Source: Oceanithermus profundus DSM 14977 (GTDB lineage: Bacteria > Deinococcota > Deinococci > Deinococcales > Marinithermaceae). Taken from it: DNA of 64,000 nt. The stretch spans positions 1,054,001 through 1,118,000 of the forward strand of contig NC_014761.1 in assembly GCF_000183745.1 (NCBI RefSeq), in the 5' to 3' direction. Both the position numbers and the translations under genes were made by a program. A model generated the notes under the pieces. The model did not search any database. It worked only from the letters and a program-made list of their open reading frames with translations, and was not told the origin of the DNA. Positions 7,573 to 16,756 of this stretch are shown one piece after another (positions within the stretch are counted from its first letter, which is position 1; each line of letters opens with the position of its first letter).

Positions 7573-8067
7573 TTACTGGGCCGAGAGGGCGCGGATGACC
7601 AGATCGGTAACGTCGATGTCGGGGGAGGCGTAGACGACGAGGCCCGACTGCCCCGCGACGTTGGCGCTGAGGATCATGGCGAAGCCGTTCTGGGCGGCCA
7701 CGCGGGCGATCGTGGCGTCGATCTCTTTGGTGATCGGCGCGAGCGCGGCGTTGATCTTGTCCTGCCACTTCTTGGAAGCTTCGGCGTAGACCTTCTGCAG
7801 GTTGTCGAAGTCCTGGCGCTCCTTGGCGGTGGCGCTGCCGTCGCGGATCTTGGGCTCGAGGGCGCGCAGCTGCTCCGCGATGGGCTTCAGCTCGGCGTCC
7901 GCCTGGGTGCGCAGCGCCTTGATCTCGTCGTACTTGGGGTGGGCCTCGATCACCTTCTGCGCGTCGATGTAGCCGACGCGGCTGGGGATCTCCTTGTTCT
8001 GGCTGAGGCCGAGCACTCCGATCATCGCGAAGAGCAACGCAAAGGATACAAGGGCGGTTCGTTTCAT
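7573..8067 (-). CDS. OmpH/Skp-like periplasmic chaperone
   Basis: 164 residues. The N-terminus MKRTALVSFALLFAMIGVLG is a signal peptide or signal anchor. The conserved GYIDAQKVIEAHPKYDE segment and the long charged helix after it are the hallmark of the OmpH/Skp family, trimeric chaperones that hold outer-membrane proteins in the periplasm. This fits a diderm Deinococcota cell. The ATG at 8067 is chosen because TAGACT lies seven bases before it; a longer in-frame extension to 8682 would run antisense to the CBS gene and is rejected. A terminator follows, so it is monocistronic. Confidence 0.85.
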   Translation of the reverse strand: MKRTALVSFALLFAMIGVLGLSQNKEIPSRVGYIDAQKVIEAHPKYDEIKALRTQADAELKPIAEQLRALEPKIRDGSATAKERQDFDNLQKVYAEASKKWQDKINAALAPITKEIDATIARVAAQNGFAMILSANVAGQSGLVVYASPDIDVTDLVIRALSAQ

Positions 8068-8074
8068 CAAGACG

Positions 8075-8080
8075 AGTCTA
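8075..8080 (-). promoter_or_regulatory. -10 box TAGACT of the OmpH-like gene (leaderless)
   Basis: TAGACT on the minus strand, seven bases (CGTCTTG) before the ATG at 8067; no room for a Shine-Dalgarno. Confidence 0.55.
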
Positions 8081-8157
8081 CGCAGGGGCGGTGAACAGGC
8101 CGTGAGAGTGCCGTCTGCATCGTAAAACGTAATAGAATGGTAGGGAAGGAGGAACGC

Positions 8158-8805
8158 ATGCTCGTACGCGACTGGATGACGCCCAACCCCCGTACCGTGA
8201 CCCCCGATACCCCGGTGCTCGACGCCATCAAGCTGCTCAAGGACCAGGGGTACCGGCGCCTGCCCGTGCTCGAGGCCGACCGTCTGGTGGGGATCGTGAC
8301 GGACAAGGACCTCAAGGACGCCATGCCCTCCAAGGCGACGACCCTCTCGGTCTGGGAGCTCAACTACCTGCTCTCCAAGCTCACGGTCTCCGAGGTCATG
8401 GCCAAGCCCGTAATCACGGTGGACGCCGACGAGCCCCTGGAGGAGGCGGCCCTCCTGATGGAGGAGTACAAGGTGGGCGGCCTGCCGGTGCTCAGCGAGG
8501 GCAAGCTGGTGGGGATCATCACGATCACGGACGTGCTCAAGGCCTTCATCGAGGTGATGGGCATGCGCGAAGGGGGGCTCAGGGTCACCCTCGACGTCGA
8601 GGACAAACCCGGCGCGCTCGAGCGGCTCGGGGCAGCGGTCAAGCCCAGCAACATCGTCTCGGTGGCGACCGCGGGCCGGCACGACGGCTACCGCATCGTC
8701 GTCCTGCGCATCACCGGCGAGGGGCTCGACACCGTCGTCGACCGCCTGCGCAACGCCGACGAAAAGGTGCTGGACGTCCGCGAGACCCGCCCCCGCAAGA
8801 TCTGA
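8158..8805 (+). CDS. CBS domain pair plus ACT domain protein (AcuB-like)
   Basis: 215 residues. Two CBS motifs are visible ([20 protein letters not shown] and [21 protein letters not shown]), each followed by a GxLVGIxTxxD strand, and residues ~142-210 form an ACT-like domain ([18 protein letters not shown]). The architecture matches AcuB-like proteins that sense adenine nucleotides or small metabolites; the target is unknown. The ATG at 8158 follows AAGGAGGAACGC, and TAGAAT at 8133-8138 is a plausible -10. A strong terminator follows the gene. Confidence 0.85.
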
Positions 8806-8823
8806 ACGCGTCCGTACAGAACC

Positions 8824-8849
8824 CGCCGCCCCCGGAACCGGGGGCGGCG
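8824..8849 (+). terminator. Perfect 12-bp stem, AA loop, shared terminator
   Basis: CGCCGCCCCCGG and its exact reverse complement, separated by AA. It lies between the convergent CBS gene and the cupin gene and can serve both strands (GTTCGG on plus, GGGTTC on minus). Confidence 0.7.
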
Positions 8850-8862
8850 TTCGGCTTGGGGA

Positions 8863-9243
8863 TCAGCGGATCTCGGGAAAGGGCTGGCCGGGCAGCCAGT
8901 CGACGTCGACCTTGTCCTTGGGGTCGTAAGGCGCCTTGACGAAGATCGCCTTCCAGGGCGTGGCCCCGCGGTTGATCAGGTAGTGCGGGTGCATCGGCGG
9001 GACGTGGCAGAGGTCGCCGGGTCGCAGGATGTGGCGCTCCCCGTTGATGTAGATCTCCACCTCGCCCTCGAGGGTGAAGAAGTTTTCCTCGACCGCCCGG
9101 TGGTAGTGGGTCTGGAAGTCCTCGCCGGGCATGAGGACCACCATGCCGAAGTCGGATCGGGGGCCGCGCAGCAGGTACTTGGGCCCCGAGACCCCGTCGA
9201 AGCGGTAGGCCACCTCGTCTTCGTGAATGATGAACGGCTTCAA
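8863..9243 (-). CDS. Small cupin protein, last gene of the lsr operon
   Basis: 126 residues, one cupin domain. Motif 1 is complete: Gly40, His46, His48, Glu53, Gly60; motif 2 supplies His87 and Asn91 (PPMHPHYLIN), so a 3-His/1-Glu metal site is expected. The start is a TTG 15 bases after the lsrK stop, with AAGGAGG overlapping that stop. The position says it works with the Lsr pathway; lsrF and lsrG, which act on phospho-AI-2 elsewhere, are absent here. Isomerisation or oxidation of a sugar-like substrate is inference only. It could also be a generic sugar-binding or mutarotase-like cupin. Confidence 0.8.
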   Translation of the reverse strand: MKPFIIHEDEVAYRFDGVSGPKYLLRGPRSDFGMVVLMPGEDFQTHYHRAVEENFFTLEGEVEIYINGERHILRPGDLCHVPPMHPHYLINRGATPWKAIFVKAPYDPKDKVDVDWLPGQPFPEIR

Positions 9244-9258
9244 GTGGATCCTGCCTCC

Positions 9259-10815
9259 TTACTCGCCGGGCGCGCGCCACATGGATCGGGTCACGCCCCG
9301 GTCGGCGAGCTCGAGCTGGGCGGGGTAGGCCGCCTTCCAGCGCCGGTAGGCCTCGTCGTAGACCTCCGCCAGCGCCGGGTCGGGTTCGACCTCGCGCTCC
9401 CAGGCCACCCAGGCCCGCGCGCCCTCCTCCAGGTTACGGTGGATCCCCACGCCCACGGCGGCCGCGATCGCCGCGCCGAGGGCGGTGGCCTCCTTCACCA
9501 CCGGGATCTTGAGCGGAATCTGCAGCACGTCGGCGACGATCTGGGGCCACAACCGTCCCTTGGCCGCGCCCCCCGCGAAGACCGCGGAGGCGAGCGGGGC
9601 TCCGGTCAGCGCCGCGATGCGCTCCAGGTTGGCCCGGGTGACCAGCGCGGCGTTCTCCTGAAGCGCCCGGAAGAACGCGCCGCGGTGGGCCTTCTCGGGG
9701 TCGAGCGGAAAGTTGAGGAACGAGGGCGCCGCGTGCCGCCAGTGGCTGTAGTCCATCGCGTCCGAGAGGATGGGGGTGATGCCGTGTGAACCCGGCGGCA
9801 CCGTCGCCGCCAGTTCCTCGAGCAGCGCGTAGGCGTCGCGCCCTTCGCGGGCCGCACGCTCCTTGAGGTCGGGGGCCAGGGCGTCGCGGAACCAGCGCGC
9901 CGCGATGCCGGGAAAGAAGACGATGGCCTCGGCCTGCCACTGGGCGGGGTCGGGGGCGAAGTTGAGGCGCATGCGGCCGCTCGCGTCCGACCTGGGCCCG
10001 TCGAGGTTGACCTCCTGCTGCCAGAAGGAGCCCCCGAGGATCGCGCCCTCGCCGGGCCGCGTCACGCCCAGGCCGACGGTGCCCAGCTGGGCGTCGCCGC
10101 CGCCCATCACGATCGGCGTCCCGACCTCGAGGCCGGTCGCGGCCGCGGCCTCGGGGCTGACCTCCCCGATCACGGTGCCGACTTCGCGAACGGGCGTCTC
10201 CTGGAAGGCCGGTTTGATGCCGAGGCGGTCGAAGAGCTCGGGGTCCCAGCGGCGGGTCGCGAGGTCGAAGAGGCCCGTGGTGCCCCCGTTCGTGGGATCG
10301 AGGGCGATCTCCGCGCCCAGGCGCACCGCGATCCAGTCGCTGAGCATGGCGAGCCGGGCGGCCCGTTCGTAGAGCTCCGGCTCGTGGCGCTCGAGCCAGA
10401 GCAGCCGCGGCGCCGCCCCCAGGGCGAAGGTCTGCCCCGAGCGCAGGTAGGCCCAGCGCTCGAGCTCGGGATCGCGCTCGCGCAGTTCGCGCACCTCCCG
10501 CACCGCCCGCGCGTCCACGTTGGCGCAGGCCCAGAGTTCGCGCCCCTGTTCGTCGTAGAGGACGATGCCCTCACGCATGCTCGTGGTGCTGACGGCCGCC
10601 ACGTTCGCCCCGGGAACCTGCGCCAGCACCTCGCGTACGGCGTCGGCGAGCCGTTCCCAGTTGCGTTCCCGCTCGAAGGTCATCGAGCCGGGGTGGCCGG
10701 GTTCTTCGCGGTGCGTCCACTCCCGTCCGGCGGAGGCCAGCTGGCGGCCTTCCTCGTCGAAGAGCACCGCGCGCCCGCTGCCGGTTCCGGCGTCGAGGGC
10801 TAGAAGATGGCGCAT
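9259..10815 (-). CDS. lsrK: Autoinducer-2 kinase LsrK
   Basis: 518 residues, FGGY carbohydrate kinase family. It matches LsrK specifically: LALDAGTGSGRAVLFD, SMREGIVLYD, WACANVDARAVREV, DPTNGGTTGLFDL, GGGDAQLGTVGLGVTRPG, GGSFWQQEVNLD, HAAPSFLNFPLDPEK, IPVVKEATALGAAIAA and a terminal SMWRAPGE. LsrK phosphorylates imported AI-2 (the linear DPD form) in the cytoplasm, which traps the signal and makes the inducer for LsrR. It sits in the lsr operon after lsrB, separated by a hairpin; GGAGG precedes the ATG. Other FGGY kinases (xylulose, erythritol) are unlikely given the match along the whole length. Confidence 0.92.
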   Translation of the reverse strand: MRHLLALDAGTGSGRAVLFDEEGRQLASAGREWTHREEPGHPGSMTFERERNWERLADAVREVLAQVPGANVAAVSTTSMREGIVLYDEQGRELWACANVDARAVREVRELRERDPELERWAYLRSGQTFALGAAPRLLWLERHEPELYERAARLAMLSDWIAVRLGAEIALDPTNGGTTGLFDLATRRWDPELFDRLGIKPAFQETPVREVGTVIGEVSPEAAAATGLEVGTPIVMGGGDAQLGTVGLGVTRPGEGAILGGSFWQQEVNLDGPRSDASGRMRLNFAPDPAQWQAEAIVFFPGIAARWFRDALAPDLKERAAREGRDAYALLEELAATVPPGSHGITPILSDAMDYSHWRHAAPSFLNFPLDPEKAHRGAFFRALQENAALVTRANLERIAALTGAPLASAVFAGGAAKGRLWPQIVADVLQIPLKIPVVKEATALGAAIAAAVGVGIHRNLEEGARAWVAWEREVEPDPALAEVYDEAYRRWKAAYPAQLELADRGVTRSMWRAPGE

Positions 10816-10831
10816 GCCGCCTCCAGACTAC

Positions 10832-10856
10832 CCCGGCCGGCCACGAGCCGGCCGGG
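10832..10856 (-). other. Intercistronic hairpin between lsrB and lsrK
   Basis: Perfect 10-bp GC-only stem CCCGGCCGGC/GCCGGCCGGG with loop CACGA, in the 49-base gap after the lsrB stop and before the lsrK start. No U-run follows on the minus strand. Such hairpins after binding-protein genes commonly stabilise the upstream mRNA or attenuate transcription; which one applies here is inference. Confidence 0.65.
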
Positions 10857-10864
10857 CACGAGGG

Positions 10865-11899
10865 CTAGAAGTCGTAGTCGTCGATGTTGTCGATGGTGAA
10901 GACGACGCGTTCGGGCAGGAGGATGATTCCGTTGTTGACCTCGCCCTGGTAGTCGTAACCCTGCACCGAGTTGGGCGAGACCTTGACGTGGCCCACGTCG
11001 GGGACGTCGAACTCGTCGCCCACGTGCAGCTGCTTGCCCTGCACGAGCAGGTTGGCCACGTAGATGGCCAGCTTGCCCTGCTTGACCACGTCCCAAAGGC
11101 CGAAGGCCTTGACCGTGCCGCGCTTGACGTAGGGGCGCATCACGTTGGGCGTCGAGAAGCCGGTGATGATCACCTTGCCGGCGATGCCCAGGTTCTCGGC
11201 GGCCTGGGCGGTGCCGGGCAGCGCGTTGGCGTCGGGGCAGATCACCGCGTCCAGGTCGGGGTGCGCCTGGAAGAGCGCGGTGGGGACCTGCACGGCCTTC
11301 TGCGCGTCCTCGTGGCTGAAGACGGTGTCGACGATCTCCCAGTTGGGGTACTGCTCGGCGATCACCTTCTTGGCGACGACGACCCACTGGTTCTGATCGG
11401 TCACGGTCGGGCTCGAATAGTGGAAGGCCACCTTCTTGGGGCTGCCCTTGGGGTCGTCCATCTGGTCGGCGGCCATCTTGACGAGCAGCTCGCCGAGCTG
11501 CTGGGCCGTGCCCTGGCTGATGTAGAAGGTGCGGTAGCGCGGGTTGACGTCGGAGTCCCAGGTCAGGATGATGACGCCCTTCTTCATCGCCCGCTTGAGC
11601 GCTTGGTTCAGCCCGTCGGGGGAGAGCGCGGAGATGGCGATGGCGTCGTAACCCTGGTTGACGAAGTTGTTGATGTATTCGATCTGGCCGGAGACGCTCG
11701 CGGTGCTGGGGCCGTCGTACTTCACCTTGATACCGAGCATGTTGCCCATCGCCACGGCGCCCTTACCCCCCGACTCGAAGAAGCCCACCCCGGTGAGCTT
11801 GGGGATGAAGGCGATCTTGACGTCCTTGGCGAAAGCCGTGCCTGCGAATGCAGCGAGGATCAGTGCTGCCGCGAAAACCAGCGAAAATTTCTTGCGCAT
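10865..11899 (-). CDS. lsrB: Autoinducer-2 binding protein LsrB
   Basis: 344 residues with a signal peptide (residues 1-24, cut after AFA). It follows LsrB closely: [101 protein letters not shown]. The six residues known to contact the AI-2 ligand in the Salmonella structure are all present: Lys34, Asp115, Asp168, Gln169, Pro222, Ala224. It captures AI-2 in the periplasm and hands it to LsrACD. The ATG at 11899 follows AGGAGG; an in-frame extension to 11923 lacks such a site. Confidence 0.95.
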
Positions 11900-11952
11900 G
11901 TTCAACCTCCTGTGCGAAACCAAGACCTGGGGCCGTTAGCTGGGTCAGGCGA

Positions 11953-12993
11953 TCACCTCCCGTCCCTCGAGGAAAGCGCCTTGCGTTTCAGGCGGTACTC
12001 TCCGTAGACGTGCAGCAGCTGCTTGGCCGCCATTGCCAGGATCAGCAGGCTGCCCACCACGACCTGAATCAGGTCGTTGGTCACGCCCAGCGCCAGCAGC
12101 CCTTGGCGGAGGAAACCCAGGATCATCCCCGCCAGCAGCGTGCCCAGGATCGTGCCGCTGCCGCCCAGGATGTCGGCCCCGCCCAGCACCACCGCGGTGA
12201 TGATGGGCAGCAGGGCGTCGCCCCCGAGGTCGGCGCGCGCCGAGGTGAAATACGAGGTCAGCATCACCCCCGCCAGCGCCGCGCCGAATCCGCTGAGCAC
12301 GTAGGCCCAGACGAGCACCCGGCGGATGGGGACGCCGCTGTAGGTGGCGGCCTTGGGGTTCACGCCGATGAGGTAGAGGTAACGGCCGAAGCGGGTCTTG
12401 TGGAGCAGCAGCGAAAGCACGAAGGCGAAGAACAGCACGGCGAGGAACGGGTAGGGCACGATGCCCAGGCTGCCCTCGGTCAGGGCGATGAAGGCGTCGG
12501 GCAGGCCGGTGATGCCTTCGTACTGGTAGGCGGCGAGGCCGGCCGAGCCGTAGGCCTTGAAGCCCAGCTTGTCGAGGAGCGCCGGCATGCCCTGGGCCAA
12601 GCCCGCGAACATGAAAAGGGTGCCGAGGGTGATGACGAGCGGGTTGACGTCGGTACGGGACACGAAGAAGCCGTTGAAGGCGCCGGCGAGTACCCCCACC
12701 AGCAAGGCCACCGCCAGCGCGGCGAAGACGTTCACCCCGGCCACCCAGACGAGGCCCAGGGTGATCGAGGCCAGCCCCATCACCGAGACGCCCGAGATGT
12801 CGATGCCCGCGGTGATGATGACCAGGGTCAGGGGCAGTGCCGCGAAGAGGATGTGGGTGAAGTCGAGGGTCGAGTAGAGCAGGTTCTCGAGGTTGAAGAA
12901 GACGGGGTTGACCAGCCCCAGCACGCCCAGTTCGAGCAGCAGGAGCGCGAAGAGCGCGAACTCCCAGCTGCGCAGGTAGCGCGTCCACTTCAT
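11953..12993 (-). CDS. lsrD: AI-2 ABC transporter permease LsrD
   Basis: 346 residues, multi-span inner-membrane permease of the ribose/AI-2 (BPD_transp_2) family. LsrD-like segments are LENLLYSTLDFTHI, ALPLTLVIITAGIDISGVSVMG, VNPLVITLGTLFMFAG, TSYFTSARADLGGDALLPIITAVVLGGADILGGSG. It pairs with LsrC to form the pore. Its ATG overlaps the lsrC stop (ATGA), so the two permeases are translationally coupled. Assignment of D rather than C rests on these matches and on the E. coli-like gene order A-C-D-B. Confidence 0.9.
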   Translation of the reverse strand: MKWTRYLRSWEFALFALLLLELGVLGLVNPVFFNLENLLYSTLDFTHILFAALPLTLVIITAGIDISGVSVMGLASITLGLVWVAGVNVFAALAVALLVGVLAGAFNGFFVSRTDVNPLVITLGTLFMFAGLAQGMPALLDKLGFKAYGSAGLAAYQYEGITGLPDAFIALTEGSLGIVPYPFLAVLFFAFVLSLLLHKTRFGRYLYLIGVNPKAATYSGVPIRRVLVWAYVLSGFGAALAGVMLTSYFTSARADLGGDALLPIITAVVLGGADILGGSGTILGTLLAGMILGFLRQGLLALGVTNDLIQVVVGSLLILAMAAKQLLHVYGEYRLKRKALSSRDGR

Positions 12994-13973
12994 GCGCCAC
13001 CTCCTGCGTCGCCGCGGATGCGGGCCTGACGCCGTTGCAGCTCGAGCGCGCTCCGAACGCGGTAGTCGACGTAGACGACGACGAGAAGGATGATCCCCGC
13101 GAAGGCGTTGTCCCAGATCCCCGGCACGCCCAGGAAGATCAGCATGCTGTGCACCGCGGTGAGGAAGAGCGCGCCGATCGCGGCCCCGACGGGCGTGCCC
13201 ACGCCGCCCGTGAGGCTGACGCCGCCCAGAACGTTGGCGGCGATGGCCTTGAGCTCGAACCCGTCGGCGGCGTTCATGGAGACGAAGCCGATCTGCGAGG
13301 TGAAGACGACGGCGGCGAAGGCGGCGAAGGTACCCGCCAGGGTGTAGGCGGCGAACTGGGTCCAGCGGACCGGAAGGCCCAGCAGGTAGGCGCCCGTCTC
13401 GTTGTCTCCCACGGCGTAGAAGTAGCGGGCCAGGCGCACCCTGAGGGTGACGAACGCCGTGAGCGCCAGCAGGGCCAGGGTCATCCAGACGAAGAAGGGG
13501 ACGCCCAGGAAGCCCCAGAGGTTGGGTTCCTTGATGCTCTGCGGCAGGTTTTCGATCCAGCTGCCGCCGGTGATGATGCGCATCAGCCCCCGATAGATGC
13601 CGAGGGTGCCCAGGGTCATGATGATGGGGGGCACCCGCAGGAAGGTCACGCCGAAGGCGTTGAGGGCGCCGGCCAGGGTTCCGGCGAGCACGGCCGCAAG
13701 GACGGCGCCGCCCACCGGCCAGCCCAGGTTGAGCGTCGTGCCCAGCACGACCGCCGCCAGCCCCGCGGTGGCGCCGACCGAGACGTCGATGCCGCGGGTG
13801 AGGATGACGAACATCTCGCCCAGGGCGATCAGCACCAGGGTGAGGCTGGCGTTGAAGATCTCGACGATCGAGGCCGCCTTGAAGAAGTTGGGGTTGAACA
13901 GCCCGGTGACGACGACGAGGAGGACGAGCAGCAGGGTGACCAGCGCTTCACGGCTGCGCACGAGATGCTTCAT
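12990..13973 (-). CDS. lsrC: AI-2 ABC transporter permease LsrC
   Basis: 327 residues, about nine or ten hydrophobic segments. LsrC-like features are FVILTRGIDVSVGATAG, TLGTLGIYRGLMRIITGGSWIENLP, YAVGDNETGAYLLGLPV and DGFELKAIAANVLGGVSLTGGVG. The start at 13973 overlaps the lsrA stop by four bases (ATGA), and its stop overlaps the lsrD start. It is half of the AI-2 import pore. Confidence 0.9.
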   Translation of the reverse strand: MKHLVRSREALVTLLLVLLVVVTGLFNPNFFKAASIVEIFNASLTLVLIALGEMFVILTRGIDVSVGATAGLAAVVLGTTLNLGWPVGGAVLAAVLAGTLAGALNAFGVTFLRVPPIIMTLGTLGIYRGLMRIITGGSWIENLPQSIKEPNLWGFLGVPFFVWMTLALLALTAFVTLRVRLARYFYAVGDNETGAYLLGLPVRWTQFAAYTLAGTFAAFAAVVFTSQIGFVSMNAADGFELKAIAANVLGGVSLTGGVGTPVGAAIGALFLTAVHSMLIFLGVPGIWDNAFAGIILLVVVYVDYRVRSALELQRRQARIRGDAGGGA

Positions 13974-15499
13974 GGCCGCCCCTCCGCCATTCCGAACGAG
14001 GCCGCGGTGACGCGCTCCAGGGTGAGGGCCCCGCCCTCGAGGTGCTCGACGACGCGGCCGCGGTGCATCACCAGCACCCGGTCGCTCAGCTCCACCACCT
14101 CCTCCAGCTCGGAGGAGATCAGCAGCACCCCGACCCCGGCGCCGGTCAGCGAGCGGATCAGCCGGTAGACGTCCTGGCGGGCGGAGGCGTCGATGCCGCG
14201 CGTGGGTTCGTCGAGGATGACGACCCTGGGCTCGGCCGCGAGCGCCCCTGCAAGCACGACCTTTTGCTGGTTGCCCCCCGAGAGCGTTCCCGCGGGCTGC
14301 CACATGCTGCTCAGCTTGATGTTCAGGGAGCGCACGAAGCCGTCGGCCACCTCGGCCTCCCTGCGGGTGTCGAGGAAGAGCCGGCCGAGGCGGCCGAGGA
14401 TGCCGGCGGTCATCGTGTAGACGCTGGGAAGTTCGAGGAAGATGCCGTGGGCGTGGCGGTCTTCGGGAACATAGACGAGGCCCTGCTCGCGGCAGAGCGC
14501 CGGCGAGCGGCGGGTGAGGGGGCGGCCGTGCACGAGCACCTCGCCGCGCGCGTGCGGGTCGATGCCCACGATCGCTTCGCACAGTTCGGTGCGGCCCGAC
14601 CCCACCAGCCCAGCGAGGCCCAGGACCTCGCCCGGATAGACCTCCAGGTTCACGTCCGCGAAGGCCTCGCTGCTCAGCCCCCGCACCGCGAGCAGGGGGC
14701 GGTCCCCCTCGCGGCGGGCTCGCTTTTCGCGCCCCGCCGGCTTGGCGCCGGTCGTCGCCGATCCGGGAGGCACCATGGCCTCGATGAGGTCGTGGGGGGT
14801 CAGGCGTTCGCGCCGGTCGCTGAGGACCATGCGGCCGTCGCGCAGCACACTGATGCGGTCGGCCACCTCCATCACCTCGCCCAGGCGGTGGGAGATGAAG
14901 ACGATGCCGATGCCGCGGCCGGCCAGGGTGCGCATCCGCTGGAACAGGCTCTCGGCCTCCCTGAAGGTCAGGGCCGAGGTGGGCTCGTCGAAGATCAGCA
15001 GCCGCGCGCGCCGCAAGAGCCCCCGGAGAATCTCCAGCAGCTGCTGCTGGGCGATGCTCAGAAAGGCGCCCTGCTCGTCCAGGTTCACCTCGAAGCCCAG
15101 CTCCTCGATCAGCGGCGCCACCTTGTCCGCGAGCTCCGCGGGTGGGAGCCCCAGCCCGATTCCCAGGTTTTCCAGGACGGAGAGGTGCGGGAAGACGTGG
15201 GGTTCCTGCGGCACCATGTAGATGCCGTGTTCGTGCGCGGCTCGGGGCGAGTCCAGGCGCACCGGACGTCCTTCCAGCTCGAGCCGGCCGGCGTCGAGGG
15301 GGTAGGCCCCCGAGATGATCTTCATCGTGGTGGACTTGCCGGAGCCGTTTCCACCCAAAAGCGCGTGGATCTCGCCGTGGGCCACCGCGAAGTCGATTCC
15401 CCGCAGCACGGGCACGCCGGCAAACACCTTCCAGGCGCCCTGGAGGCGCAGCAGCGGCGGCGCGTCGGCCGGGGCTGCGGAGGCGCGGGCCGCGCTCAC
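13970..15499 (-). CDS. lsrA: AI-2 ABC transporter ATP-binding protein LsrA
   Basis: 509 residues with two ABC cassettes. The first has Walker A GGNGSGKS, signature LSIAQQQ and Walker B LLIFDEPTSAL; the second has a degenerate Walker A GLVGSGRTE, a full LSGGNQQK signature and VVILDEPTRGID. This asymmetry is normal for LsrA/RbsA-type ATPases. I start it at the GTG at 15499, preceded by CCGGAGGAAAC; the longer frame to 15619 begins inside the promoter-operator and is rejected. It is the first gene of lsrACDBK-cupin and powers AI-2 uptake. Confidence 0.9.
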   Translation of the reverse strand: MSAARASAAPADAPPLLRLQGAWKVFAGVPVLRGIDFAVAHGEIHALLGGNGSGKSTTMKIISGAYPLDAGRLELEGRPVRLDSPRAAHEHGIYMVPQEPHVFPHLSVLENLGIGLGLPPAELADKVAPLIEELGFEVNLDEQGAFLSIAQQQLLEILRGLLRRARLLIFDEPTSALTFREAESLFQRMRTLAGRGIGIVFISHRLGEVMEVADRISVLRDGRMVLSDRRERLTPHDLIEAMVPPGSATTGAKPAGREKRARREGDRPLLAVRGLSSEAFADVNLEVYPGEVLGLAGLVGSGRTELCEAIVGIDPHARGEVLVHGRPLTRRSPALCREQGLVYVPEDRHAHGIFLELPSVYTMTAGILGRLGRLFLDTRREAEVADGFVRSLNIKLSSMWQPAGTLSGGNQQKVVLAGALAAEPRVVILDEPTRGIDASARQDVYRLIRSLTGAGVGVLLISSELEEVVELSDRVLVMHRGRVVEHLEGGALTLERVTAASFGMAEGRP

Positions 15500-15611
15500 C
15501 GTTTCCTCCGGAGGGGACGGGTCGGTCTGGATGCGTCTACGTTCAACACCATGGCGTAGGGGCCTCCCGGGCGTCTGCGCTGAAATCACATATGACAGCG
15601 CGTTGTAACTT

Positions 15612-15621
15612 ATGTGCACAT
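15612..15621. promoter_or_regulatory. Palindromic operator candidate at the lsrA promoter
   Basis: Perfect 10-base palindrome ATGTGCACAT, touching the -10 box of the lsrA promoter and covering its likely start point. The 10-mer TATGTGCACA (15611-15620) occurs again at 15734-15743 in front of lsrR. A further imperfect palindrome with CATATG core lies at 15587-15598. Binding by the divergent SorC/LsrR regulator is inferred. Confidence 0.6.
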
Positions 15622-15649
15622 CCTAAGTCGCGCCGCGAGAGCGTGTCAA
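15620..15649 (-). promoter_or_regulatory. lsrACDBK promoter
   Basis: On the minus strand a perfect -35 TTGACA (15649-15644), an 18-base spacer and -10 TAGGAT (15625-15620). The transcript would start near 15613, inside the palindromic operator, and carry a leader of about 110 bases before lsrA. Confidence 0.65.
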
Positions 15650-15718
15650 GGGCCAGGCAACCCGGGAAAAGGCGCGCGCCATCGAACGACTGCTTGTGGG
15701 GGCGCTTCTTCGGTGTGT

Positions 15719-15743
15719 TAGAGTAATGTCACGTATGTGCACA
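15719..15743 (+). promoter_or_regulatory. lsrR promoter and operator candidate
   Basis: TAGAGT at 15719-15724 is a fair -10; the upstream TTGTGG at 15694 is a weak -35 with a 19-base spacer. TATGTGCACA at 15734-15743 sits just after the expected start point and repeats the site at the lsrA promoter, so autorepression is likely. Confidence 0.5.
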
Positions 15744-15766
15744 CGGGGAGAGGGAGGGCATCGTCG

Positions 15767-16756
15767 ATGAATGAGGCCGAACGCGGAGCCGTCCGGGGCC
15801 GCCCGCGCGAAGACCGCCTCGCCTACCTGGCGCGCGTGGCTTCGCTTTACTACGAGGAGCAGAAGACGCAGCAGGAGATCGCCGCGTTGCTGGGCATCTC
15901 GCGCTCGGGGGTTTCGCGCCTGATCACCGAGGCCCGAGAGCGCGGGGTGGTGGAGATCATCGTGCACCACCCCTTGCAGACCTCTCCCGACCTGGCCGCG
16001 GAGCTGCAGCGGCGCTACGGCCTGAAAGACGTGCGGGTCCTGGCCGGCCGGGAGGAGGCCTACGAGCGCACCCTCAAGCGCCTGGGCGAGCTGGCGGCCC
16101 GCTACTTCGAGGACCTGCTCCACGACGGCATGACGATCGGGATCTCCTGGGGCGGGGCGCTGTACGAGATGATCCGTGCGATCCGCCCGCGCGTGCACGA
16201 GAACGTCGAGGTCGTCCAGCTCATCGGGGCGACGGGTGCCGAGGCCACGCCGACGAGCGGTCCCATCCTGGCGCAGCTGCTGGCCGAACGCCTCGGTTGC
16301 CGCAGCTACCAGCTGCACGCGCCGCTGATCGTGGACGGCGCGGCGGCGCGCCAGGCTCTCCTGGGCGAGCGCCACATCCGCGAGACGCTGGAGCGGGCCC
16401 GCAGGTCCGACATCGCCCTGGTGGGCATCGGCACCACCCGGTCCGGCTATTACAGCCTGGTGCGCGCCGGCTACCTCACCGAGGCCGAGGCCGCGGAGAT
16501 CCGCAAGAGCGGAGCGGTCGGCGACGTTTGCGCGCAGCACTACGGCTTCGACGGCCGCTGGCTCGACATCGAGCTGAACCGCCGGGTCATCGGCATCGAC
16601 CACGACGCCCTGCGCCGCATCGACACGGTGATCGGCGTGGCCGGGGGCGCGGTCAAGGCCCAGGCGATCCACGGGGCGCTGCGGGGACGCTACGTGAACG
16701 TGCTGATCACCGACGAGGCCGCGGCGCGCCGCCTGCTGGAGATGGAGGCGCCCTAG
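15767..16756 (+). CDS. lsrR: SorC/LsrR family transcriptional regulator
   Basis: 329 residues. The N-terminal HTH reads LYYEEQKTQQEIAALLGISRSGVSRLITEA, and the C-terminal sugar-binding domain has ALVGIGTTRSG, KSGAVGDVCAQHYG and VAGGAVKAQAIHGALRGRYVNVLITDE, the SorC-family phosphosugar fold. LsrR in enterobacteria represses lsr genes until phospho-AI-2 binds. The sequence alone says SorC family; the LsrR role comes from its divergent placement next to lsrACDBK. The ATG at 15767 follows GGGAGAGGGAGG; an upstream in-frame ATG at 15737 lies inside the operator. Confidence 0.82.
   Translation: MNEAERGAVRGRPREDRLAYLARVASLYYEEQKTQQEIAALLGISRSGVSRLITEARERGVVEIIVHHPLQTSPDLAAELQRRYGLKDVRVLAGREEAYERTLKRLGELAARYFEDLLHDGMTIGISWGGALYEMIRAIRPRVHENVEVVQLIGATGAEATPTSGPILAQLLAERLGCRSYQLHAPLIVDGAAARQALLGERHIRETLERARRSDIALVGIGTTRSGYYSLVRAGYLTEAEAAEIRKSGAVGDVCAQHYGFDGRWLDIELNRRVIGIDHDALRRIDTVIGVAGGAVKAQAIHGALRGRYVNVLITDEAAARRLLEMEAP

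What the first reader, a model, noticed from the sequence alone, without database searches (positions are those of the whole stretch)
8863..16756. Complete core Lsr autoinducer-2 system in a Thermaceae-like chromosome
lsrA, lsrC, lsrD, lsrB and lsrK follow each other on the minus strand with four-base overlaps between A, C and D, and a divergent SorC/LsrR-family regulator faces them. Gene order A-C-D-B matches enterobacteria, and LsrB and LsrK match along their whole length. The Lsr system is best known from enteric bacteria and some other groups. A working AI-2 sponge in a thermophilic Deinococcota would be unexpected and could mean horizontal acquisition or eavesdropping on neighbours.
Basis: partly seen in the sequence, partly recalled or inferred. 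Interest (0 to 1): 0.8.

Follow-up and report, generated by a model that had tools for sequence, protein, structure and literature searches.

The report
Vent bacterium's autoinducer-2 uptake operon
A heat-loving bacterium carries genes that very probably take up and phosphorylate the common bacterial signal autoinducer-2, with a small cupin protein where the usual processing enzyme LsrG is missing; the uptake part was already in print, and what the cupin does is open.

Summary
LsrB and LsrK pass NCBIfam cut-offs; LsrA, C and D match Lsr models best but miss the cut-offs. All six AI-2 contact residues of LsrB are kept. luxS lies beside an MTA/SAH nucleosidase gene, so the organism probably makes AI-2. 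"Complete" is too strong: LsrG was not found, the regulator misses the LsrR cut-off, and LsrF lies about 0.7 Mb away in a methylthioribose-type cluster. Trees put LsrK with Anaerolineae and LsrB with Anaerolineae and Rhodobacterales, not enterics. Of 77 LsrB loci with lsrK in view, 33 have only the cupin, 34 only LsrG, 10 both, none neither; on the trees these are few changes. Best reading: a usual Lsr uptake-and-kinase system in which a cupin probably handles phospho-AI-2 before LsrF. LsrB and LuxS of this species (2018) and an lsrK-adjacent "sugar phosphate isomerase" (2012) are in print, so it is a new member of a known kind. Open and testable: does the cupin replace LsrG?

The parts
8863..9243 (-). 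cupin, 126 aa (TTG start), last gene of the operon; proposed to process phospho-AI-2
   Evidence: Cupin_2 68 bits; invariant H46, H48, E53, H87 in 44 of 44 aligned members; model mean pLDDT 95.2; downstream of lsrK on the same strand in 43 of 43 loci that have both
9259..10815 (-). lsrK, autoinducer-2 kinase, 518 aa
   Evidence: NCBIfam NF008187 740 bits, cut-off 528; closest solved chain is autoinducer-2 kinase 5ya0, E 4.6e-172
10865..11899 (-). lsrB, AI-2 binding protein with a signal-peptide-like start (ORF open to 11923; start at 11899 inferred)
   Evidence: NCBIfam NF011937 551 bits, cut-off 384; six of six AI-2 contact residues kept
11953..12993 (-). lsrD, importer permease
   Evidence: best NCBIfam match LsrD, 282 bits, cut-off 500
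12990..13973 (-). lsrC, importer permease (start inferred from the 4-base overlap)
   Evidence: best NCBIfam match LsrC, 290 bits, cut-off 388
13970..15499 (-). lsrA, importer ATPase (ORF open to 15619; start inferred, as several relatives have 495-508 aa)
   Evidence: best NCBIfam match LsrA, 549 bits, cut-off 586
15612..15621 (.). candidate operator on the lsrA side, palindrome ATGTGCACAT
   Evidence: perfect palindrome; same palindrome in the two nearest genomes L021 and L022; function inferred
15736..15743 (.). candidate operator on the regulator side, TGTGCACA
   Evidence: same core 124 bases on; also in L021 and L022, not in L023-L026; function inferred
15767..16756 (+). divergent SorC-family regulator in the lsrR position (ORF from GTG 15737)
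   Evidence: PF04198 247 bits; DeoR 256 and LsrR 167 bits, both below cut-off

Best explanation
This is an Lsr-type AI-2 uptake operon. LsrB captures AI-2 outside the cytoplasmic membrane, LsrA/C/D import it, LsrK phosphorylates and so traps it, and the SorC-family regulator presumably lets go of the divergent promoters when it binds phospho-AI-2. The organism probably makes AI-2 itself (luxS with an MTA/SAH nucleosidase) and takes it back. Enteric systems clear phospho-AI-2 with the isomerase LsrG and the thiolase LsrF. Here LsrG was not found; the lsrK-linked cupin probably does the step between LsrK and LsrF (isomerisation or ring opening), and an unlinked LsrF yields DHAP and a two-carbon product (products recalled). 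Shown: genes, order, key residues, luxS, no LsrG match at E up to 0.001. Inferred: substrate, induction, cupin activity (about 0.5 for 'acts on phospho-AI-2 or its direct derivative'), use of the distant LsrF.
For: LsrB and LsrK above curated cut-offs. LsrB residues K42, D123, D176, Q177, P230, A232 match K35, D116, D166, Q167, P220, A222, the six named in PMC3386761 as shared by functional receptors. Solved relatives: five chains named LsrB or unspecific sugar-binding proteins at 421-459 bits and LsrB 6dsp at 301, rhamnose-binding chains at most 148. LsrK and LsrB in the same 9 of 111 Deinococcota genomes. luxS with the nucleosidase gene beside it. LsrF over cut-off at C2:358999, with 8 of 8 checked active-site residues including the Schiff-base lysine (residues from PMC2728841 passages). 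LsrG over cut-off in 0 of 111 and without a match in the own genome. Cupin downstream of lsrK in 43 of 43 loci with both, and between K and F in 14 of 16 Bacillota loci and in L072. All 11 Deinococcota cupin hits lie after lsrK (8) or beside an LsrF relative (3). Fold nearest to small cupins, among them archaeal phosphomannose isomerases, DddK and KdgF.
Against: No binding or uptake was measured. LsrB is 61% identical to E. coli LsrB (206 of 340), just under the 63% (to S. Typhimurium LsrB) that PMC3386761 reports for the tested functional group. LsrA/C/D and the regulator miss their NCBIfam cut-offs. Ten of 77 loci have cupin and LsrG together, which strict replacement does not predict. The cupin/LsrG pattern rests on 3 cupin changes and 1-2 LsrG changes on the trees, so no sign test can be significant. 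Five of 13 cupin-only genomes searched whole have weak LsrG-like matches (42-82 bits, cut-off 135). LsrF sits in another pathway's cluster.
Confidence: 0.75

Rival explanations
1. The uptake part works as said, but the cupin is not an LsrG substitute: it opens or interconverts ring forms of AI-2 or phospho-AI-2 (as KdgF does for uronates, recalled) or acts on a side product, and phospho-AI-2 isomerises by another enzyme.
For: Ten of 77 loci keep both cupin and LsrG. KdgF structures are among the nearest folds, Z 14.5 and 14.0, tied with other cupins. Weak LsrG-like matches in 5 of 13 cupin-only genomes.
Against: No LsrG match at E up to 0.001 in the window's own genome. None of the 77 loci lacks both.
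Confidence: 0.35
2. The operon is a pentose or deoxysugar importer and kinase that no longer handles AI-2, with the downstream DHAP-forming pathway as its real purpose.
For: LsrF lies with MtnA, MtnK and a CUT2 importer, next to the lsr operon in two genomes. NF008187 also matches kinases in five loci without LsrB, so the kinase model alone is not diagnostic.
Against: All six AI-2 contact residues kept, while rhamnose-type relatives are reported to change D166 and A222. LsrB model far above RhaS (551 to 235 bits). The MtnA/MtnK cluster has its own importer.
Confidence: 0.12
3. The cupin is a structural or regulatory partner of LsrK rather than an enzyme.
For: Adjacency to lsrK, 43 of 43 loci that have both.
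Against: Metal-ligand-like pattern H46, H48, E53, H87 invariant in 44 of 44; three Deinococcota genomes have the cupin beside LsrF and were not hit by the LsrK search.
Confidence: 0.08

Closest known systems
Lsr system of Escherichia coli / Salmonella (lsrACDBFG + lsrRK)
   Same: A-C-D-B order and overlaps, LsrB contact residues, LsrK, divergent SorC-family regulator
   Different: lsrK follows lsrB; cupin in place of lsrF-lsrG; LsrF unlinked; LsrG not found; regulator below the LsrR cut-off; 31-61% protein identity to E. coli
Lsr operons of Anaerolineae (Chloroflexota), e.g. L067, L068, L070, L071
   Same: A-C-D-B-K-cupin, no LsrG in view; SorC regulator where in view; in the same clade in LsrK and LsrB trees
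   Different: 6 of 9 Chloroflexota cupin loci show LsrF in view near the operon
Bacillota lsr loci with cupin after lsrK (L088-L104 except L097) and the 'mannose-6-phosphate isomerase' next to lsrK described in PMC3420918
   Same: cupin directly after lsrK; PMC3420918 already suggests a phospho-AI-2 processing role
   Different: that paper names B. cereus group, Spirochaeta smaragdinae and S. enterica; it has no mention of Deinococcota or Oceanithermus, and its section 13 does not set the gene against the absence of LsrG
DHAP shunt / 5-deoxyribose salvage (MtnK, MtnA, class II aldolase DrdA; PMC6079011, passages)
   Same: MtnA and MtnK beside the LsrF relative
   Different: an LsrF-type class I enzyme plus an Rpe-like epimerase and an alcohol dehydrogenase instead of DrdA

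Membership tests
Lsr AI-2 uptake system | LsrB above the curated LsrB cut-off | tested here: met
   551 bits, cut-off 384
[quoted passage not shown]
   6 of 6, list from PMC3386761
Lsr AI-2 uptake system | over 63% identity to S. Typhimurium LsrB (criterion quoted in PMC3386761) | tested here: inconclusive
   61% to E. coli LsrB; identity to the Salmonella protein itself was not computed
Lsr AI-2 uptake system | LsrK above the curated cut-off, encoded with LsrB | tested here: met
   740 bits, cut-off 528; same operon
Lsr AI-2 uptake system | dedicated LsrA/C/D importer encoded with LsrB | tested here: met
   gene order and overlaps; Lsr model is the best match for each
NCBIfam equivalogs LsrA, LsrC, LsrD | score over the curated cut-off | tested here: not met
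   549/586, 290/388, 282/500 bits
LsrR (NF011947) | score over the curated cut-off | tested here: not met
   167 bits, cut-off 486; DeoR model 256, cut-off 420: filed only as a SorC-family regulator
Enteric-type complete lsr operon | LsrG present | tested here: not met
   no match in the own genome at E up to 0.001; 0 of 111 Deinococcota over cut-off, 1 weak match in G072
Enteric-type complete lsr operon | LsrF present | tested here: met
   over cut-off but unlinked, C2:358999-359781; 352 bits, cut-off 297
Lsr AI-2 uptake system | binding, import and phosphorylation of AI-2 | not testable with these tools
   needs purified proteins and AI-2 depletion assays
LsrG-equivalent phospho-AI-2 isomerase (the cupin) | converts phospho-DPD to the 2,4-dione | not testable with these tools
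   only linkage, metal-ligand pattern and fold are known
Phosphomannose isomerase / ureidoglycine aminohydrolase cupins | score over a curated NCBIfam cut-off | tested here: not met
   best 27.8 bits, cut-off 200

The most novel reading that the evidence does not exclude
A whole branch of Lsr systems (Deinococcota, Chloroflexota, Spirochaetota, Bacillota) uses a metal cupin as a non-orthologous phospho-AI-2 isomerase in place of LsrG, and in the Oceanithermus group the last enzyme, LsrF, is shared with methylthioribose/5-deoxyribose salvage, so that AI-2 uptake there is chiefly salvage of carbon from S-adenosylmethionine by-products, ending in DHAP.
Probability: 0.3. Interest if true: 0.6.

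Novelty: new member of a known kind. Interest (0 to 1): 0.38.

Why it matters
If AI-2 import works in this thermophile, AI-2 removal is shown far from the enteric model and at high temperature (growth temperature and lability of AI-2 recalled, not from a call). The larger point is the cupin: it follows lsrK in all 33 lsrB-lsrK loci outside Pseudomonadota that were in view, I found no paper that tested its function, and a single in vitro experiment would show whether it is the missing enzyme of phospho-AI-2 turnover. The placement of LsrF with MtnA/MtnK makes the question 'signal or salvaged carbon?' directly testable.

Tried and rejected
Rhamnose- or ribose-binding identity of LsrB: rejected on model scores, solved relatives and contact residues. 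Eavesdropping without own AI-2: made unlikely, luxS present. Enteric donor: not supported by trees. Recent island by composition: not seen; the lsr stretch has 69.3% GC against 70.4 +/- 1.3% for 7.9-kb windows of the 64-kb window, and third-position GC of 92-95% like the three neighbouring genes measured. Cupin/LsrG exclusion as a statistical proof: rejected, too few changes on the trees. LsrK model as a marker of AI-2 kinases: rejected, since five loci without LsrB reach 589-645 bits. An operator shared by all seven Deinococcota regions compared: not found; the ATGTGCACAT palindrome is in the window, L021 and L022 only, and two related 9-mers in 5 of 7 regions. Papers on a cupin in the lsr operon: searches. 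One search gave PMC8876208 (table label 'Cupin domain protein in autoinducer 2 (AI-2)-related operon', one passage seen); PMC3420918, listed in 17, 79 and 84, has the gene under another name (passages; section 13 read whole). LsrF with methylthioribose: one search lists 4 papers, by their titles not on this subject, none opened. The long list of cupins in the fold search says fold, not function. The cupin search in 278 Bacillota genomes is a weak specificity test, since few of them can be expected to have lsr genes (2 of 398).
Full report
WHAT IS THERE. The window is G000:C2:1054001-1118000 of a 2,439,291-base genome in two contigs; C2 has 2,303,940 bases. From recall, these sizes fit Oceanithermus profundus DSM 14977, and the 61% LsrB identity to E. 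coli agrees with the 62% that PMC6022435 gives for that species (passages seen); no call names the genome. On the minus strand lie lsrA, lsrC, lsrD, lsrB, lsrK and a cupin gene, with a divergent regulator. A/C and C/D overlap by four bases; the gaps D-B, B-K and K-cupin are about 53, 49 and 15 bases (with the inferred lsrB start). The cupin ends at 8863, the first base of the finding, but was not named in it.

IDENTITY OF THE PARTS. LsrB (551 bits, cut-off 384) and LsrK (740, cut-off 528) pass NCBIfam's equivalog cut-offs over nearly their whole length; LsrA (549/586), LsrC (290/388) and LsrD (282/500) have the Lsr model as best match but miss the cut-off; the regulator is a SorC-family protein whose best model is DeoR (256/420), then LsrR (167/486). 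The nearest solved chains are named LsrB or, unspecifically, sugar-binding or sugar transport protein (4pz0, 1tjy), at 421-459 bits, then LsrB 6dsp at 301; rhamnose-binding chains reach 148. The nearest solved kinase is autoinducer-2 kinase 5ya0. Identity to E. coli K-12 (sequences): B 61, K 51, D 45, A 43, C 41, R 31%. All six AI-2 contact residues are present; PMC3386761 (passages seen) reports that receptors with all six and over 63% identity to S. Typhimurium LsrB were functional, and that the group below 36% with changes at D166 and A222 is likely for rhamnose. This protein has the residues and sits just under the identity line (measured against E. coli, not Salmonella).

THE REST OF THE PATHWAY IN THE GENOME. 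luxS is at C2:1972520-1972957 (172 bits, over cut-off) and an MTA/SAH nucleosidase gene over cut-off at C2:1971814-1972389; the two matches are about 130 bases apart on the same strand. [quoted passage not shown] profundus in its table and results, while its discussion says Pfs is present; the gene is there. LsrF over cut-off lies at C2:358999-359781, about 0.7 Mb from the operon, with 8 of 8 checked residues kept, including the lysine equivalent to Lys203 and Asp57 (PMC2728841 passages). LsrG gives no match at E up to 0.001 in this genome and is over cut-off in 0 of 111 Deinococcota genomes. In the family searches the control genome called Escherichia coli did not reach the cut-off, so that control seems to lack the lsr genes; K-12 LsrF and LsrG themselves score 560 and 192 bits.

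DISTRIBUTION AND HISTORY. LsrB (E up to 1e-60) and LsrK (E up to 1e-90) are found in the same 9 of 111 Deinococcota genomes (5 of the 85 that are at least 90% complete and little contaminated): 8 in the window's family (two genera) and one, G073, in another family. A scan of the species-genome collection found 281 LsrB relatives and kept the best 80. In the LsrK tree (quick, 79 rows) the Deinococcota rows form one clade (97*) inside an 18-row clade (99*) with Chloroflexota, a Spirochaetaceae row and L076, next to Bacillota; E. coli is far away. In the LsrB tree (quick, 65 rows after thinning) the 8 Deinococcota rows are one clade (100*) inside a 31-row clade (99*) of Chloroflexota, L076 and Rhodobacterales/Hyphomicrobiales rows. 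So the operon is not of enteric origin in these trees; which way it moved is not shown. Composition shows no recent island.

THE CUPIN. The cupin has a Cupin_2 domain and no NCBIfam assignment near cut-off. Forty-four aligned members keep H46, H48, E53 and H87, the usual metal-ligand pattern (ligand roles recalled). The predicted fold (mean pLDDT 95.2, pTM 0.86) is closest to small single-domain cupins, among them archaeal phosphomannose isomerases, DddK and KdgF (Z about 14-15.5). In the maps, tallied, 77 of the 80 loci have lsrK in view: 33 with cupin only, 34 with LsrG only, 10 with both, none with neither. The other three: L064 (contig ends in lsrK), L126 (lsrK out of view, LsrG present), L119 (LsrB alone). 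Cupin and lsrK are on one strand and adjacent in 43 of 43, by gaps estimated at -11 to 140 bases on the assumption of a 126-residue cupin. In the 11 of 111 Deinococcota genomes with this cupin (E up to 1e-10), 8 have it after lsrK and 3 (G076, G079, G087) have it beside an LsrF relative (for 10 of the 11; the window itself for G000); the ninth lsr genome, G020, has its contig end inside lsrK and no cupin hit. In 278 Bacillota genomes it was found only in the lsr-bearing centre genome, at E up to 1e-15.

LIMITS OF THE CUPIN ARGUMENT. The 33 cupin-only loci are Deinococcota, Chloroflexota, Spirochaetota, L076 and Bacillota rows; the LsrG-only loci are all Pseudomonadota; both occur together in nine loci of the Pleomorphomonas/Ancalomicrobiaceae clade and in Edwardsiella hoshinae. 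That is three cupin changes and one or two LsrG changes on the trees, so the pattern has no statistical force as independent swaps. In 13 genomes of cupin-only loci searched whole, LsrG is over cut-off in none, but 5 have weaker matches of 42-82 bits; an in-operon LsrG of Pleomorphomonas scores 131, also under the 135 cut-off. Picking loci by LsrK instead gave 15 further loci: 10 Pseudomonadota with LsrB, all with LsrG and without cupin (one, L173, on a contig of the same length as L109's and probably the same), and 5 without LsrB and without either by these models; one of the latter, L164, has a different cupin-like ORF after the kinase (seen by eye).

PRIOR KNOWLEDGE. PMC3420918 (section 13 read whole) describes a gene annotated 'mannose-6-phosphate isomerase' adjacent to lsrK in B. 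cereus group, Spirochaeta smaragdinae and S. enterica, in the LsrR regulon of Salmonella, and suggests a phospho-AI-2 processing role; that it is the same cupin is my inference from position and annotation. A RASTtk/PATRIC annotation carries the label 'Cupin domain protein in autoinducer 2 (AI-2)-related operon' (PMC8876208, one passage). So the link cupin-lsrK is known; I did not see its relation to the absence of LsrG in what I read of the papers found by searches (most of those papers seen as listings only). LsrB in Deinococcota is listed in PMC12268683 (passages).

HOW IT PROBABLY WORKS. AI-2 made through LuxS leaves the cell, returns through LsrB-LsrACD, is trapped by LsrK, and phospho-AI-2 both induces the operon and is cleared. 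In enterics LsrG isomerises it and LsrF does the last step (PMC12263705 passages, citing work not held). The change between the two diones is a keto-hydroxyl shift, a reaction type that metal cupins are known for (recalled), and the order K-cupin-F in 14 of 16 Bacillota loci matches the reaction order. This is inference; ring opening is a real alternative.

THE LsrF NEIGHBOURHOOD. In 10 of 10 fetched genomes (nine of the window's family and G073) the LsrF relative lies in a cluster with MtnK, an Rpe-like epimerase and, where the contig or fetched stretch shows them, MtnA, an alcohol dehydrogenase and a CUT2 importer; MtnA and MtnK of the window's genome pass their cut-offs. In G018 and G021 this cluster lies just beyond the lsr operon on the same strand, with about 1 kb between the cupin and its binding-protein gene. 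The LsrF of this cluster groups with the lsr-linked LsrF of the Anaerolineae L068 and L070 (100*), but on a long branch about which the tree program warns. This fits either one enzyme serving both pathways or recruitment from one to the other.

VERDICT. A true, probably working Lsr uptake-and-kinase operon with a different processing end; mostly known in kind. The worthwhile open question is the cupin.

Noticed in passing
L046 (G000:C2:350000-368000), 7913-16481 minus strand: CUT2 importer, MtnA, MtnK, Rpe-like epimerase, LsrF-type class I aldolase and Zn-alcohol dehydrogenase in one cluster: looks like a methylthioribose/5-deoxyribose DHAP shunt with LsrF in place of the class II aldolase DrdA.
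   Followed up: partly
L055, L056, L057 (G076, G079, G087): LsrR-like regulator (best NCBIfam model LsrR in L055 and L056, below cut-off), LsrF relative and cupin together, in genomes that the LsrK search did not hit; in L056 dihydroxyacetone-kinase-like subunits and a transketolase-like half lie nearby, all below cut-off.
   Followed up: partly
L073-L075, L077, L078, L080-L085, L087, L108: Rhodobacterales/Hyphomicrobiales operons look hybrid: LsrB groups with Chloroflexota and Deinococcota but LsrK with other Pseudomonadota, and LsrG is present without cupin.
   Followed up: no
L160-L162: Chloroflexota kinases over the NF008187 cut-off without LsrB in view, beside a 2-hydroxyacid dehydrogenase-like and a cyclase-like ORF (named by eye): the AI-2 kinase model seems to catch another pathway too.
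   Followed up: partly
L164:1391-5372: Bacillota kinase with two permease-like ORFs and a different cupin-like ORF directly after the kinase (by eye).
   Followed up: no
L001 and L141 (G000:C2:1971814-1972957): luxS and an MTA/SAH nucleosidase gene side by side, where PMC6022435's table lists no Pfs for O. profundus.
   Followed up: yes
8137-8805 +: CBS-domain-like protein convergent with the lsr operon (read by eye).
   Followed up: no
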